Below, one piece after another: positions 3,158 through 51,495 of a stretch of 64,000 nucleotides of DNA (its first letter is position 1; each line of letters begins with the position of its first letter). Origin of the DNA: Pisolithus tinctorius. Lineage: Eukaryota; Basidiomycota; Agaricomycetes; Boletales; Pisolithaceae. Both the position numbers and the translations under genes were made by a program. Where the stretch lies: the NCBI GenBank assembly GCA_024663395.1, contig JANFAH010000045.1:434001-498000 (forward strand), given 5' to 3'. The notes under the pieces are model-generated. The model searched no databases. It had not been told where the DNA came from and saw only the letters and a list, made by a program, of their open reading frames with translations.

Positions 3158-5091
3158 TGTGAGTCAAAGTGTGGAAAGCTGGTATAAACCAAACAAATCC
3201 AACACAAAAGACAAATATGAGCGAGTGGTGGTTTACCTCCATGGAACCTGGAGGGCAGAGAAACATAAAGTGGGGGAGACTTCAAGTGGAGGTGCTCCTG
3301 GTGCAAGTCATTGACAAGTTATGCAGGAGAGGATGAATGAATGCTGATTGAGAAGGGGATGCTGAACAGAGCAGGGGTGTTCAGCTGAAAGGACTTGGGA
3401 GTAATGGATTTCAATAGAATATGCTCCTGGTGCAAGTCGATGATGAGTTATGCAGGAGTGGAAGAATGACTAAACAAGATTTGCTGACTAAGTGTGGATG
3501 GAGCTTCAGATAATGAATGATGGTAGATAGACCCCTTCATAGAGCCTCAACTACCAATGATATGAATGAAGACAGATAGACTCTTCTGAATGAGCCTCAG
3601 CTGTTGACAACGAGATAGGCACTGAACTGACTTCTGAGTGACTTCTTGATTGCTTGTTTTTTTTTTTTTAGCTAAGTACATGGGGGTTTATATACTGTGG
3701 GGGGAGTGCAGCTTGTGACAAACAAGGCACAAACACTTGGTAAGGAATGAGTAAGGACTGAGTAATCATGATGAGTAAGCAAGAAATGAAAAGTAAGCAA
3801 GCAAAGAGGATTGGTAAGTATTGGCAATGAACAAGTCAAGGATAGTCAAAATATCACAGAATGAGTCAAATGGAGTCAGAAACTGAGTAAGCACACTGAT
3901 ATCACATCAGGGGGTGGCGATGCAAGTCAGATCTCGGCAGAGACATCTCTAGATCCAAAGATGGCATGAAAGATGGATGGTGTTTCCAGACAAGGAAGTA
4001 TTAATTCCAGAATTGAAGGGCATGAGTCAGGCATCAGGCGTCAAAGGGGGCTAGGGTGTTGGGGGTCTGTGGGGCAATGGAAGCATACGCGATCACATCT
4101 CCCACCCTTTCGTCCTCTCAGCAAAGTTAACAAAAACTTCATGAACAGGGCTCTGATGGAGGAGGAGGAGGAGAAGGGGGGACATCTTCTGCTGGATCTT
4201 GCAGTAAGAAGGCAAGATGCATGTCATACTCATCATGGATGCGATCAGGAAGGCTAGAGAACAGTAGACTATGCTGCAGCTGTCACAATGCGGGAAGAAT
4301 GATGGACGAGATTGGAATAAAGATGGTGCAGGGAGCAGGGAGGAATGATCCATATGCTTCATCAAGAGGGGAGACCAAAACGACCACATAAGACCTTTCT
4401 AACCGAGTGACAGACCTGAGGCGACCAAAGAACATCCTTCTGGAAGTCATACTGACAAGGAGAACACACTGACCAAGCTGCATGGGATGAGATGGGGCTG
4501 ACAACGACGGGATGAACCAGGGGGCTTCAGGACAGAAGCTGGTGGGAACACCTGGCAGATATATGTAGCCACTGTCTCTGGCAAATGAGACAAGTGAGAC
4601 AGAAGCTGGTGGGAACACCTGGCAGATATACGTAGCCACTGTCTCTGGCAAATGAGACAAGTGAGATGATCAATGAAGAGGTGGCCATGATTGATGGACT
4701 TAGCAAAATGAGCATCTGATGGATGGAGTGCTGTAGAAATGCGTAGGGTGCGAGGATCCTCTCCAAATTTGGAAGGAAGAATCATGGGGCTGAGCACTTT
4801 AAGCGAGTGTGAGAACAGAGTCGATATCTTTGGAAATGGTGGAGATACGATGAAAACTGGAATGCTGTACACAGGTGCTAAAAACTTTTAATGTGTGCTT
4901 AACTCACTTCCTCTTTTCTCTTTAGCACTGACGACTCATTCTTGTGCAAAGGATGACTGCTCACATCCAGCAGTCTTTCTATGCATGAGGCCTTCAGTCT
5001 TCATCTGCATGCATGGGCATTGTGCACAACTCATTGACAAGTTAGGCAGAGTCAGCTGTAACCATGTCCACAACACCTTTGGTGTGTGACA
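3158..5091 (-). mobile_element. LTR-type element, copy A (~1.93 kb)
   Basis: Read on the minus strand, it begins TGTCACACACC and ends GACTCACA, the TG...CA termini of an LTR. The flanks are TCGG (3154-3157) and TTGG (5092-5095), a 4-bp target duplication with one C/T difference. A TATATAAA-like promoter box lies about three quarters along. Copies B, C and D share the whole length. The simplest reading is a solo LTR of an unusually large LTR; a non-autonomous element is the alternative. Minus-strand reading frames between 4872 and 4093 correspond to the ORF conserved in the other copies, interrupted here by a stop. Confidence 0.75.
4531..4664. repeat. 67-bp tandem duplication private to copy A
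   Basis: 4531-4597 is repeated as 4598-4664 with one visible difference (tatatg versus tatacg). Copies B, C and D have a single unit, so the duplication arose after insertion or in the parent of copy A. Confidence 0.85.
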
Positions 5092-22874: not shown

Positions 22875-24650
22875 TGTCATGACCATGACACTGATGTAAG
22901 CCCCTAACACCTACTCTGCCCTCTTCTGACATGTTCCCATGCTTCTCCACCCTCTTCTGACGTGTTCCCACGCTTCTCCGCCCTCCTCCGACGTGTTCCC
23001 ACGCTCCTCTGACCCTCCTGACACATCTCCACACCTCTCCGAGGTCCCCTGTCCATGTTCTGACCAACTCTGCTCAACTCTGCCCTAAGGTTGCTCATGT
23101 GGGCTGTCAGACTTGTGGCCCTGCATTCTAGATAGGGTTCTGCCCTCGTGTCGGTTTTCTCCATTCTTCTGCTCCTTGGTATTTACCCTCTCTTCCTCAT
23201 TGTAGTAGCTTCCTTGTCTCAGTTAAGGTCCCCATCACCCCTACCCTCTATCCCTTGTGTCAGAGGGACTACTAACCCGTTATACACTTATTGGTTTACA
23301 TTCTGCACTGCACTGCCCTTGGCCTACATTGTATATAAGTGTCATATCCATGACTCTCGGACTCAGTCCCAGTCCAGTCCGGACCCCTAGCCCCTATCTC
23401 CGGTCAAGTCCGGTCCCAGTCCAGCCTAGAAAACCTAGTTCCGGCCTAGAGAACTCAACTCCAGCCCTAGGAAACCCAACTCCGGTCTAAATAACTTAAG
23501 TCCGATGTTTTACCCCTATCTCCGGTCCATTTCGGCCTCCCGGCCTTGCGCTGCTCCACCCCGGTCCTCCCAGGTCTATGTCCGGGTCACTCGGACATAA
23601 CTCCGGTCTGTTTCCCTTTGTTTGTACTATATTTAGTCTAGCCCGTTCATCTGACTTTTGCTTACTGTACAAATCCTGTGTCTGACCCCGGTATGCCGGT
23701 CACCCGGACTTTAGCTATTAGTCTCTGCACAGCCTCTGTGGCTGTCCTCACTCTTGCTAATCATCTTGCTAATAGCTTATTCACAAGTCCGGCTTCATGT
23801 CCTTTACTCCGGACCGGCCTCATGTATTTAACCCCTGTACATACATCGTAGTACCCTCAGTCAGAATATCAACTTAGTATTACCCTCAACTCCATGTTAC
23901 CCCTTGATCTACTCTATAGCTAAGGCCGAGCCTTAAGCTATCCCCGACCCCTGTCCCGGACCTCTCCCCGGCTTGCATAAGGGTACAGCACATAAGCTGA
24001 GACCAAGGGAGGTAGATCCAACCCCGGACCAGCTTCCCCTTGTGCGCACTCCAAGACCGGTCGGTTTCCCACGCTACCGGCCTTGTTCCCGCGCTCCCGG
24101 CCTTAAGTCCGGTCCTCCGGACTTAGCCCCTAACCTCCGGCCTCGACTCTGGTCCAACCGGACTTGGCCCCTGTCTCTCGGCCTTAACTTTGGCCACTCG
24201 GACTTAGCCCCTGTCACCCGGTCTTGAAGCCTGGTCACTCTGAGGGTAAACCTGTACTTCACAATAAGGCCACATAGTACTCCAATGTAATCAGTATGAA
24301 TATCGAATAAAGTCCCCACCTTCGACTCCCTCTCAATCCCCTCTGGAGTTTCATCTCCACTTCCTCTGAGTCTGCTCCACCTCTGAAATACGAGGGCTGA
24401 GCTCATGCAAGGGGGCAGTGCACTAGCTGAACCCAACGCCCTCCTCATCCAACCTCTGACCTCTGACCTCCAACTCCAACTCTGACCTCAGTCTCCAAAA
24501 CTTTCCTTCATACCCCTCCACTCACTGTTCATCAAATATCTTGCCACCCAGTGGTCAGATTCGCTTTGGACTTTGACCGCTGTACTCTGCAGCCCAACCC
24601 ACTCCAACTCCGCCCTAAGAGGAAGCCAGGGGTGTTGTCCAACTTTGACA
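22875..24650 (+). repeat. Large solo LTR in the Helitron Rep gene, probably composite
   Basis: Starts TGTCATGACC, ends AACTTTGACA. A perfect 5-bp duplication TACAG lies at 22,870-22,874 and 24,651-24,655. The 3' part (24,240-24,440) resembles the LTR of element 2: CAGTATGAATATC at the transcript-start position, then CTCATGCAAGGGGGCAGTGCA. The middle (about 23,160-24,240) holds a second set of LTR-like signals (TATATAAG near 23,334, CAGTCAGAATATCAAC near 23,869) and many CCGG/TCCGG-rich short repeats. Another LTR has probably inserted into the first, with ends I could not fix. Confidence 0.75.
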
Positions 24651-47862: not shown

Positions 47863-50800
47863 TTAATTGGCCTTCAACAGCATGTTTGCTGAAAACACCT
47901 CAGAACAGTAACTCCATAAATAGTGAAAATGTCCACTTACACATGTGATGCTCAGTGGTGATCTTGACAATAGCATCACATAAACCATCCATATCACCTT
48001 TATGGTCATGAAAAGCTGCCTTGACAGCATTTGAAATGGCAGCTTGTATTTTGGACCTGTTGTATTCCTCCACACTCAATGACAAAACCTCCTGCCAAAG
48101 ATGTTGCCCTTGCTGCATTAAAAAGTAAGAATGCTCAGCAACAAGCAAGCATCCTAGACCAGTGAGTATATCTTGTGTAGGCAATGGGAAACACTTACCA
48201 ATGGCATGTTCAGCCATTGACTGGAGACTTGGGAACCTCCCCAACAAAGTGACATCTTTGGGCAGAGCTGGCATTTGGACAGCAGTATTGACTTCAAATT
48301 TTGACTGGTACTCTGTATGTTTGCCTTAGACAAAAAGGGGTATTAGGCCAATGCTTACAAGCTAAGAGTTTTAATGGCACATGTGTGACAAATATGGTCA
48401 AAGTATACATGGATGAGAAATATAGCCAGTTTTGGCTGCTATAGGTTACACACCTCCTGCCATGGAAGAGGTCATACCAAGGGCACCACCACACAACCAT
48501 GATCAGTATATGCATGCAAAAAAGCATGGAACCACTCACATTCTGCCATAAAAGGTGGTTTTGGGAGTCCATAAAATGTAGCAAATATCAGGGGCAACTG
48601 AGTAGAAACACTTACAAGCTACAAGTCATGTGGAACCCAAAGTATGGATGTCAAGGGAATCAGGAAAGATCCAACATTGGATTAAATTCACATACATTCT
48701 GCCATACCATCATCATGAACAGTGCAAGGGATTGCACTGAGCAGACATCCAGCTAAACATGCCATCAAATCACTCACCTCCTGTCATGCCACCAACATGG
48801 AGAGTGCAAGTGAGGCCATTGAGCAGACATCCAGCCAGACATGCCATGAAATCACTCACATGCTGTGCTGCCACCAACATCAAGAGTGCAAGTGAGGCCA
48901 TTGAGCAGACATCCAGCTAAACATGCCATCAAATCACTCACACGCTGTGATGCCACCAACATCAAGAGTGCAAGTGAGGCCATTGAGCAGACATCCAGCT
49001 AAACATGCCATCAAATCACTCACAGGCTGTCATGCCACCAACATCAAGAGTGCAAGTGAGGCCATTGAGCAGACATCCAGCTAAACATGCCATCAAATCA
49101 CTCACAAACTGTCATGCCACCAACATCAAGAGTGCAAGTGAGGCCATTGAGCAGACATCCAGCTAAACATGCCATCAAATCACTCACATGCTGTCATGCC
49201 ACCAACATCAAGAGTGCAAGTGAGGCCATTGAGCAGACATCCAGCTAAACATGCCATCAAATCACTCACAGGCTGTCATGCCACCAACATCAAGAGTGCA
49301 AGTGAGGCCATTGAGCAGACATCCAGCTAAACATGCCATCAAATCACTCACATACTGCCATGCCACCAACATCAAGAGTGCAAGTGAGGCCATTGAGCAG
49401 ACATCCAGCTAAACATGCCATCAAATCACTCACCTCCTGTCATGCCACCAACATCAAGAGTGCAAGTGAGGCCATTGAGCAGACATCCAGCTAAACATGC
49501 CATCAAATCACTCACCCACTGTGATGCCACCAACATCAAGAGTGCAAGTGAGGCCATTGAGCAGACATCCAGCTAAACATGCCATCAAATCACTCACAAA
49601 CTGTCATGCCACCAACATCAAGAGTGCAAGTGAGGCCATTGAGCAGACATCCAGCTAAACATGCCACCAAATCACTCACCCACTGTGATGCCACCAACAT
49701 CAAGAGTGCAAGTGAGACCATTGAGCAGACATCCAGCTAAACATGCCATCAAACCACTCACAAGCTGTCATGCCACCAACATCAAGAGTGCAAGTGAGGC
49801 CATTGAGCAGACATCCAGCTAAACATGCCATCAAATCACTCACATACTGCCATGCCACCAACATCAAGGGCATGAATGACTCTAGTCAGCAAATCCAGCA
49901 TGGCCATGCCATTAATTACTCACACCCTGTTAATACATGCAAGGGAACATAAAATGGGAGTGTCATTCACTCCATATGTTGAAAGAATTTTGACACTTAC
50001 ATCACAATTTGGAAACCATTTCAGCAAGTCACATTCCAATACTTTTGCATCCACCTGCAATCTTCCCTTGAAACCTAGCTCCATTCTGTTTCTCAATGTC
50101 CTTCAGAATATCAGTATCTGCACCAAAACACACTTCCTTACTTACTTGTGCACAGCATATTGAACACATAGTGCAATACTTGACTGCTGTGTTGATATAA
50201 GTAACCTTTGTAAACCTTCCTCATTCAACACATTTGCTGTGCACTGCATCAAAGCACTGCAATCTGCACTGTCTTGATGCATCTCTGCCACCAGAATTTT
50301 CTAGTAGCACCATTTCTGAGTGATGAAATACTCACTCTGAAGTGACACATATCCCTTAGGTGGAAACTTGCACTTGCCAAGCTCCTGTTTTATGTGGTCA
50401 AGCCACTTTTCCAACAGTTCTCCCTGCTTTTCTGCTGCCCTTTCCTTTGCCTCAGCTATGGCAAAACCTTCATCCAGAAGCCCCCTAAGTGCAGGGAGGT
50501 ACAAGGCATCCACTTTGGTCAATAGCACTATCACAGGAACTATGCAGAAGTTTAGTCACATGCAATCCTATCTGTGGCAGTCTTTTTCTTACCATGACCT
50601 GTGTCACATTCATTGAAGAATTTCTGCTCAGCAGCTGTTACTGTCCTGTGGTAGTCTGTCATGGGGATGCAAAACCTACATTCATTTCTTCACTTAGCCT
50701 GTAGTTACTCGCAATGTATTCCTTACCAAATGGCATGGATTCGTTCATTCACCCTCATTGTGGCTCCACGTTCAGCCACAAAGCCCCGCATCTGGTCAAA

Positions 50801-51495
50801 CTGCTGGACGGTACCTGCTTCGAACCCACAGGAGTCATGGAAGACAAAGCGCGGGTTACTCTGAAACACGACCTCTTGCTCGATATTATGGTAGCCACGC
50901 TGAGAGCACTCAGCATTCATATGAATTTCCACGAGTCAACAGGACATCTTACTCCCAAAGTCCCTTGCACGACAACACCATCCATCTGAAATTGTTAGAT
51001 AGGTTTCACCAACCTGATAGGACTATACCTTGTTTCCTTTCCCATCGAAGATCTCTGGCTTTTCTGTAGAGTTGCACACTCTTTGGAGGATGGTGGTTTT
51101 ACCGGCATTTGCTCTGCCCATGACCAGAATTCGAAAGCGCTCTATGTTTTTCATGTATTCTTGAGCCATCTCAGAATTGAGACGGTAAGCAAGTCCAGAA
51201 GACGCAGTTCCTGCGACTCGGCATTAGACAATTTGGATTTCACGAAGAGCGACAATAATACCTTGTGGAGTAGCTTCAATCTGAGGGGGAACTGGATTCG
51301 CCACATCACCAATAAGACCGCTAGCTTCTGTGTTCCGATATTAAGCATGTCATGTTTCGTAGGCTAGAACAATATCACACCTGCAGCCGCAGCTTCAGTT
51401 GCAGCCGGAGCTATATGGCTTGGATCGCTCTGGCTAGCGCGATGCGAATCACTGCCGAGCGACTTGAGCCACTTCTTGATACGACCAGGAGCCAT
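47863..51495 (-). CDS. P-loop GTPase (HSR1/G-domain type) with a train of single-codon exons
   Basis: Start at 51,495 (MAPGRIKKWLKSLGSDSH). Ordinary exons: 51,381-51,495; 51,262-51,327; 51,029-51,210; 50,953-50,994; 50,727-50,899; 50,593-50,675; 50,336-50,539; 50,146-50,284; 50,001-50,085; 47,941-48,304; 47,863-47,888. All have GT-AG borders and sum to 1,479 nt (492 residues). G1 is RILVMGRANAGKTT, the switch/G3 region is FVFHDSCGFEAG, then RIHAIWFCIPM and G4 VIVLLTKVDALY. The C-terminal half is helical (KMHQDSADCSALMQC, LLKWFPNCD, SKFEVNTAVQMPALPK). Key residues are intact, so it looks functional, probably GTP-binding. Between the exons ending at 50,001 and starting at 48,304 lie twenty putative 3-nt exons, which would add 20 residues. 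Role in the cell is unknown; such GTPases are multi-copy in agaricomycetes. Confidence 0.85.
48359..49926 (-). other. Twenty predicted single-codon exons separated by ~80-nt introns
   Basis: Each unit reads, on the minus strand, acceptor AG, three bases, donor GT(A/G)NG(T/C). Exon starts on the plus strand, from 5' to 3' of the gene: 49924, 49844, 49762, 49680, 49598, 49516, 49434, 49352, 49270, 49188, 49106, 49024, 48942, 48860, 48778, 48696, 48616, 48540, 48454, 48359. Codons in order: GGT, TAT, CTT, TGG, TTT, TGG, GAG, TAT, CCT, CAT, TTT, CCT, CGT, CAT, GAG, AAT, CTT, AAT, GAG, CTT. The upstream exon ends GAT|GTAAGT in phase 0 and the downstream exon starts CAG|TCA in phase 0. All codons are sense. 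The alternative is a single 1.7-kb intron containing a minisatellite. Confidence 0.6.
48778..49926. repeat. 82-bp tandem array (14 near-identical units)
   Basis: The unit carries CATGCCACCAACATCAAGAG and GAGCAGACATCCAGCTAAAC. Spacing is exactly 82 bp from 48,778 to 49,844, with one diverged unit on the right (to 49,926) and diverged units on the left. Most variation between units sits in three bases after ACTCAC (ctc, atg, acg, agg, aaa, atg, agg, ata, ctc, cca, aaa, cca, aag, ata). A second cluster lies in the next few bases (ctgtcatg, ctgtgatg, ctgccatg, ctgtgctg). Confidence 0.95.

What the first reader, a model, noticed from the sequence alone, without database searches (positions are those of the whole stretch)
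48305..50000. A train of twenty single-codon exons in a GTPase gene
Seen: on the minus strand, from the GAT|GTAAGT exon end at 50,001 to the CAG|TCA exon start at 48,304, there are twenty consecutive occurrences of AG, exactly three bases, then GT(A/G)NG(T/C). They are spaced 76-95 bp apart. All twenty triplets are sense codons. The flanking exons are both phase 0, so the triplets join in frame, and any subset can be skipped without a frameshift. Inference: they are spliced as 3-nt exons, giving a GTPase with a 20-residue insert that could be varied combinatorially, comparable in logic to schistosome micro-exon genes but at the minimum possible exon size. I know of no described array of this kind. 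The conservative alternative is one 1.7-kb intron containing a minisatellite.
Basis: partly seen in the sequence, partly recalled or inferred. Interest (0 to 1): 0.95.

Follow-up and report, generated by a model that had tools for sequence, protein, structure and literature searches.

The report
Protein stretch built from single-codon exons
In a mushroom that lives with tree roots, GTPase genes carry long rows of exons only three bases long, each adding one amino acid, so that a highly variable piece of protein seems to be assembled one residue at a time by splicing.

Summary
In detail: twenty AG-NNN-GT units on the minus strand of a Pisolithus tinctorius GTPase gene. The bold reading is supported too: the triplets are single-codon exons. 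Protein P0033, from a short contig that reads as spliced RNA, continues after its last ordinary exon with 44 residues; an array in this same genome (L035) spells 43 of them in order, one codon per about 82 bp. An annotated P. tinctorius protein (P0102) matches 21 consecutive codons of an array of another repeat type. In 14 non-redundant arrays 0 of 449 triplets is a stop (25.5 expected), and 12 of 13 arrays read to their 3' end close with NLNEL, sometimes with synonymous changes. Codons vary far more than the introns between them. Against: one set-aside copy has three TGA triplets; P0102 departs from the genome after 21 codons; no product of the window gene itself was found. Combinatorial skipping is not shown, and the role of the variable segment is inferred. 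Ten paper searches found no such array described.

The parts
51381..51495 (-). exon 1 of the GTPase gene (MAPGRIKKW...)
   Evidence: gene model from the sequence; agrees with P0001
51262..51327 (-). exon 2
   Evidence: P0001
51029..51210 (-). exon 3 with P-loop GRANAGKTT
   Evidence: P0001
50953..50985 (-). exon 4
   Evidence: P0001
50727..50899 (-). exon 5
   Evidence: P0001
50593..50675 (-). exon 6
   Evidence: P0001
50336..50539 (-). exon 7 (VPVIVLLTKVD)
   Evidence: P0001
50146..50284 (-). exon 8
   Evidence: P0001
50001..50100 (-). exon 9, last ordinary exon before the array, ends WFPNCD in phase 0
   Evidence: start set by TLRNRMEL in P0001, my first start 50085 was wrong
48305..50000 (-). 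array of 21 introns and 20 single-codon exons
49924..49926 (-). micro-exon 1 GGT (G)
49844..49846 (-). micro-exon 2 TAT (Y)
49762..49764 (-). micro-exon 3 CTT (L)
49680..49682 (-). micro-exon 4 TGG (W)
49598..49600 (-). micro-exon 5 TTT (F)
49516..49518 (-). micro-exon 6 TGG (W)
49434..49436 (-). micro-exon 7 GAG (E)
49352..49354 (-). micro-exon 8 TAT (Y)
49270..49272 (-). micro-exon 9 CCT (P)
49188..49190 (-). micro-exon 10 CAT (H)
49106..49108 (-). micro-exon 11 TTT (F)
49024..49026 (-). micro-exon 12 CCT (P)
48942..48944 (-). micro-exon 13 CGT (R)
48860..48862 (-). micro-exon 14 CAT (H)
48778..48780 (-). micro-exon 15 GAG (E)
48696..48698 (-). micro-exon 16 AAT (N), first of the constant NLNEL end
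48616..48618 (-). micro-exon 17 CTT (L)
48540..48542 (-). micro-exon 18 AAT (N)
48454..48456 (-). micro-exon 19 GAG (E)
48359..48361 (-). micro-exon 20 CTT (L)
48199..48304 (-). first ordinary exon after the array (SKFEVNTAVQMPALPKDV...)
   Evidence: acceptor supported by relatives without the upstream AG (L011, L022)
47941..48153 (-). next exon (CLLVAEHSYFLMQQ...), helical C-terminal part
   Evidence: by comparison with P0005 and P0008

Best explanation
The 1.7-kb stretch is a tandem array of complete short spliceosomal introns separated by exons exactly one codon long. Splicing removes the introns and joins 20 codons into a 20-residue segment between the GTPase part and the C-terminal helical part of the protein. 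Shown for sister arrays and inferred for the window gene: the codons are included in order. Inferred mechanism: a 3-nt exon cannot hold splicing factors on both sides at once, so each intron (about 79 nt with its own 5' site, branch site and 3' AG) is recognised across the intron and neighbours are spliced one after another; each step adds one codon and exposes the next donor, a recursive splicing with a one-codon payload. Since every exon is three bases, gain or loss of a whole unit keeps the frame. Inferred function: a genomically encoded hypervariable binding segment with constant ends (often xY at the start, NLNEL at the end), diversified residue by residue, probably under selection for amino-acid change.
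For: P0033 against L035: 43 of 44 residues in order; other offsets in the repeat reach at most 13, shuffled unit orders at most 19 in 10,000. The one mismatch (Q for R) is CAA=Q in the second copy L036. P0102 against L043: 21 of 22, other offsets at most 6. P0079 holds 13 residues equal to the joined codons of L042 read in frame +1, against at most 8 in 3,000 shuffles. 0 stops in 449 triplets of 14 arrays, shuffles 11-40. Genome-wide 1,004 strict matches against 0 for the reversed pattern; 2 of them begin with a stop triplet. Of 1,019 matches with 1-9 bases between the sites 1,004 have three. Ends: NLNEL in 12 of 13 arrays, KLNEF in one, with CTT/CTG/CTA changes while the introns there are 78-97% identical to the window's. 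Codon diversity in the window 0.67, 0.78, 0.46 against an intron mean of 0.028.
Against: No transcript or protein of the window gene with its insert was found. That P0033's contig is RNA is inferred from its being continuous across ordinary introns; the label lgn is not explained by any search. P0102 lacks the first candidate unit of L043 and departs after 21 units. L036, a near copy of L035, has three TGA triplets of 55 and lost units. L009, the second copy of the window array, is disrupted at unit 2. Some units have unusual donors such as GC or AT. Order of splicing, absence of skipping and function are not tested.
Confidence: 0.93

Rival explanations
1. One 1.7-kb intron that holds a minisatellite; the AG-NNN-GT pattern recurs only because the unit recurs.
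For: The middle of the array is an 82-bp tandem repeat; public gene models such as P0008 and P0019 join the flanking exons directly.
Against: P0033 and P0102 contain the codons; 0 stops of 449, and the triplet is among the most variable columns of the unit while AG next to it does not vary in any of the 14 arrays; outer, diverged units keep the length of three.
Confidence: 0.03
2. The single-codon exons are real but are chosen combinatorially, so that one gene makes many inserts by skipping units.
For: All splice sites in an array are nearly alike and any skip keeps the frame; P0102 leaves out one candidate unit and departs after 21 units.
Against: P0033 skips none of 44 units. P0079's 13 residues follow the unit order without a skip. 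An assembled contig shows the main form only, so minor forms are not excluded.
Confidence: 0.2
3. The exons are real, but the codon variety is neutral drift and the insert is only a spacer.
For: The model of relative P0005 gives the insert low confidence (residues 366-407 below pLDDT 50), as for a flexible loop. Complete arrays differ in length from 17 to 51 units.
Against: Each codon position is more variable than the mean intron column in each of the 14 arrays. Composition is skewed: D 52, W 47, E 40, Y 38 of 384 core residues, against S 2, K 1, I 1, C 1. In 4 of 14 arrays no amino acid has two codons, where drift should give synonymous changes.
Confidence: 0.2

Closest known systems
Micro-exon genes of schistosomes (recalled; no paper on them was read here)
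   Same: rows of small symmetric exons that can vary a protein without shifting the frame
   Different: those exons are larger and, as recalled, of different lengths in secreted proteins; here every exon is one codon, in tandem copies with nearly equal introns, in a GTPase family of a fungus
Isolated 3-nt exon of Drosophila homothorax (PMC7392893, abstract seen) and 1-nt exon of Arabidopsis APC11 (PMC4674806, abstract seen)
   Same: exons of three bases or fewer are spliced in vivo
   Different: single exons in single genes, conserved in sequence; not a row of 17-55 hypervariable ones
Plant microexons of 1-15 nt (PMC8831610, passages seen)
   Same: missed by gene annotation; donors GTRAGT at 1-nt exons
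   Different: the passages seen mention at most two adjacent microexons
Recursive splicing at ratchet points or RS-exons (PMC6224609 and PMC5126111, abstract starts in listing only)
   Same: a splice event creates or exposes the next 5' splice site
   Different: classic ratchet points leave no exon (recalled); here each step leaves one codon
TAL effector repeats (recalled)
   Same: near-identical repeats that differ mainly at one short coding position, read as a string
   Different: there the whole repeat is translated; here only the variable codon is kept and the rest is intron

Membership tests
Tandem single-codon exons (the kind proposed here) | spliced product contains the codons in genomic order | tested here: met
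   P0033/L035 43 of 44 and P0102/L043 21 of 22, both sister genes; not tested for the window gene
Tandem single-codon exons (the kind proposed here) | exon length exactly three while introns vary | tested here: met
   346 matches of length 3 against 3 of other lengths from 1 to 15 in 14 arrays (7 of length 0, which CAG codons can produce, not checked singly); introns 58-93 nt
Tandem single-codon exons (the kind proposed here) | no stop triplets | tested here: met
   0 of 449 in 14 arrays; but 3 of 55 in the set-aside copy L036
Intronic minisatellite | variation spread over the unit without regard to reading frame | tested here: not met
   codon positions 0.67, 0.78, 0.46 against 0.028 in the window array
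Schistosome micro-exon genes | exons of several sizes above 3 nt (recalled) | tested here: not met
   length three only
Schistosome micro-exon genes | secreted protein with signal peptide (recalled) | not tested
   no signal peptide tool was run
Zero-exon ratchet points of recursive splicing | 3' AG directly joined to GT, no exon left (recalled) | tested here: not met
   three bases lie between the sites; 7 zero-length matches in 14 arrays, of which CAG codons can be the cause
Immunity-related or dynamin-like GTPases | G domain closest in fold to this group | tested here: inconclusive

The most novel reading that the evidence does not exclude
A fungal repertoire of GTPase receptors whose recognition segment is written one residue per exon: tandem intron-codon units let the genome lengthen, shorten and re-letter a binding peptide of about 15-50 residues without shifting the frame, strong selection for amino-acid change diversifies the codons while the introns stay alike, and splicing runs as a one-codon-per-step ratchet over dozens of introns. 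The repertoire may serve self/non-self or partner recognition.
Probability: 0.45. Interest if true: 0.98.

Novelty: categorically new. Interest (0 to 1): 0.96.

Why it matters
Single exons of three bases are rare curiosities; here 17-55 follow one another in one gene, and strict matches number about a thousand in one genome. It poses a direct test for models of exon recognition: how dozens of one-codon exons are joined without loss. It shows that public gene models of a whole protein family break off or jump at the same place. And it offers a new way to build a hypervariable protein segment, by residue-sized exons, in a fungus that can be grown and sequenced.

Tried and rejected
Minisatellite in an intron: rejected for the sister genes. 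Codons copied together with linked intron variants: not supported; 14 of 15 variable columns show no link within arrays (p above 0.2), one column has p 0.002 before correction (only 140 units of seven arrays were used). A contiguous genomic copy of the P0033 insert: none found, but the query is Q/E-rich and the tool warns that an empty answer shows nothing. P0005, P0034, P0097 and P0101 also continue past WFP or the like with long inserts, but none has a close match over the listed hits in this genome (best lines 55-68%, some single exons up to 84%), so they could not be checked against their own genes. Two C-terminal protein searches gave 3 and 4 hits and no product of the window gene. My first start of exon 9 (50085) was wrong; P0001 and P0005 set it to 50100. 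Sequence families: weak P-loop hits only. Papers: ten searches listed no paper on such an array; closed journals and preprints are not held. PMC10066745 has no occurrence of GTPase, intron, tandem or GTP-binding in its main text. Papers seen: abstract and outline of PMC4674806 and PMC7392893; passages of PMC8831610, PMC4014442, PMC3990503 and PMC10066745, and section 14 of the last; all others as search listing only.

Full report
WHAT IS THERE. On the minus strand, between a phase-0 exon end at 50001 (KWFPNCD|gtaagt) and a phase-0 exon start at 48304 (cag|SKFEV), lie twenty units of AG, three bases, GT(A/G)NG(T/C), spaced 76-95 bp. The middle is an 82-bp tandem repeat; the outer units are diverged but keep AG-3-GT. 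No other chain of three or more units exists in the window; 100 random first-order sequences reach one or two.

WHERE IT IS. The gene belongs to Pisolithus tinctorius; that this is an ectomycorrhizal mushroom is stated for the genus in PMC10066745 (listing). NCBI protein P0001 is 99% identical over 76% of my model and lies on a contig of 541,700 bases, the length of contig C45 that holds the window. The published model runs into a repeat intron and stops there. The protein has a P-loop G domain with weak Pfam and NCBIfam hits. In the AlphaFold2 model of relative P0005 (mean pLDDT 71.6) the G domain and helices are followed by the insert, residues 366-407 below pLDDT 50, and then by C-terminal helices. 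The G-domain fold is closest to immunity-related GTPases, tied with septins and YsxC, which says nothing firm about function.

RELATED ARRAYS. The array has 90 matches in its own genome (only 40 of 57 first-look candidates were scored), which I merge by hand into about 38 places, the window included. I read 20 of the others, plus L035 and L036, L042 and part of L043. For counts I set aside L009, L012, L014, L015, L016, L018, L020 and L021 as near-identical copies of arrays already in the set; L009, L014 and L016 also look faulty in homopolymers or disrupted (my reading). I set aside L036, which has three TGA triplets of 55. That leaves 14 arrays: the window, 12 of the 20, and L035; 17-55 units each, 449 in all. 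L042 and L043 came later and are not in these counts.

CODING EVIDENCE. None of the 449 triplets is a stop; shuffles that keep the base composition of each codon position give 11-40, mean 25.6. Genome-wide, a strict pattern of two neighbouring units has 1,004 matches (0 for the reversed pattern; matches can overlap, so they are not unit counts), of which 2 begin with TAA or TGA and 0 with TAG; one of the 2 lies in L036. With one to nine bases between the sites there are 1,019 matches, so 15 have a length other than three, while the reversed pattern has 37. In the 14 arrays the length is three in 346 cases and 7, 8 or 12 in one case each; 7 zero-length cases can come from CAG codons. Introns vary from 58 to 93 nt. 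Of 13 arrays read to the 3' end, 12 close with NLNEL and L023 with KLNEF. Compared with the window, the introns between these last codons are 78-97% identical, and the 15 coding bases differ by 0-2, synonymously except in L023.

TRANSCRIPT EVIDENCE. P0033 comes from a 1,695-bp contig of a source labelled lgn. It is continuous across ordinary introns seen in L035, so I take it as spliced RNA. After WFPNTK it has 44 residues that the NCBI model P0019 of the same gene lacks. The genomic locus L035 spells 43 of the 44, unit by unit over about 3.5 kb. Other offsets in the repeat reach at most 13 of 44, shuffled unit orders at most 19 in 10,000. P0102, an annotated P. tinctorius protein on a contig of the same length as C41, matches 21 consecutive units of L043, an array with a different, 80-bp unit; the next unit differs (V in the protein, G in the genome) and the first candidate unit is absent from the protein. 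P0079 holds 13 residues equal to the joined codons of L042 in frame +1; its remaining insert residues are not explained. The annotation of P. tinctorius was seeded with Trinity and Iso-Seq transcripts (PMC10066745 section 14). No product of the window gene with its insert was found.

VARIATION. Among window units in strict 82-bp register, diversity at codon positions 1-3 is 0.67, 0.78 and 0.46, against a mean of 0.028 over other intron columns (single columns up to 0.46); AG and GT do not vary. In each of the 14 arrays each codon position (0.27-0.87) exceeds the intron mean (0.009-0.206); AG never varies, GT varies a little in L013, L022 and L035. No word of four core codons is shared in any of the 91 pairs of arrays. 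Six pairs of near copies were compared: four have the same codon series, L013 and L015 differ by one whole TGG unit, L035 and L036 by lost units and stops. No triplet of 449 ends in C; the 384 core residues hold D 52, W 47, E 40, Y 38 but S 2, K 1, I 1, C 1. In 4 of 14 arrays each amino acid has a single codon, in the rest a few have two or more. I read this as selection for amino-acid change with introns kept alike by exchange between units; this is inference.

HOW IT PROBABLY WORKS. The consensus introns have GTGAGT, a CTNAY site 30-39 nt before the end, and (C/T)AG; 390 of 453 introns in 14 loci have CTNAY within 10-60 nt of the end. A one-codon exon cannot be recognised across the exon, so introns must be recognised one by one and neighbours spliced in turn, each step adding one codon. 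Shown: joined products in sister genes. Inferred: the order, the general lack of skipping, and the function.

OTHER SPECIES. Gene models of P. orientalis (P0123), P. marmoratus (P0006) and P. microcarpus (P0060) contain what read as translated repeat units, so arrays probably exist there. P0005, not of this genome, has an insert of 34 residues that ends LNEL before PSFDV.

Noticed in passing
L036 (G000:C4:2502900-2507900): Near copy of the Q/E-rich array L035 with three TGA triplets and lost units: a decaying copy or one in which those exons are skipped.
   Followed up: partly
L042 and L043 (G000:C17:82480-85720, C41:54400-56350): A second repeat type (80-bp unit, introns of 77 nt ending GGGGTTCATAG) carries single-codon exons in another GTPase subfamily with WFPF and SIKH around the array.
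   Followed up: partly
449 triplets of 14 arrays: No codon ends in C, and W, D, Y, E, G and R are common while S, K, I and C are nearly absent; unexplained, perhaps a donor-site constraint together with binding chemistry.
   Followed up: no
Public Pisolithus proteins P0001-P0123: Many gene models of this family end just after WFPNC or read into repeat units, so the C-terminal part is lost or wrong in public data.
   Followed up: partly
L009 (G000:C110:51000-60990): The second copy of the window array is disrupted at its second unit by a T-rich stretch; assembly fault or real change not decided.
   Followed up: no
L013 and L015: Near-identical arrays differ by exactly one inserted TGG unit: whole-unit gain or loss that keeps the frame.
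   Followed up: yes
window 4531-4666: Two copies of a 67-bp tandem repeat, 98% matches, unrelated to the finding.
   Followed up: no
window 22919-24212: Several short tandem repeats of 31-41 bp, not studied.
   Followed up: no
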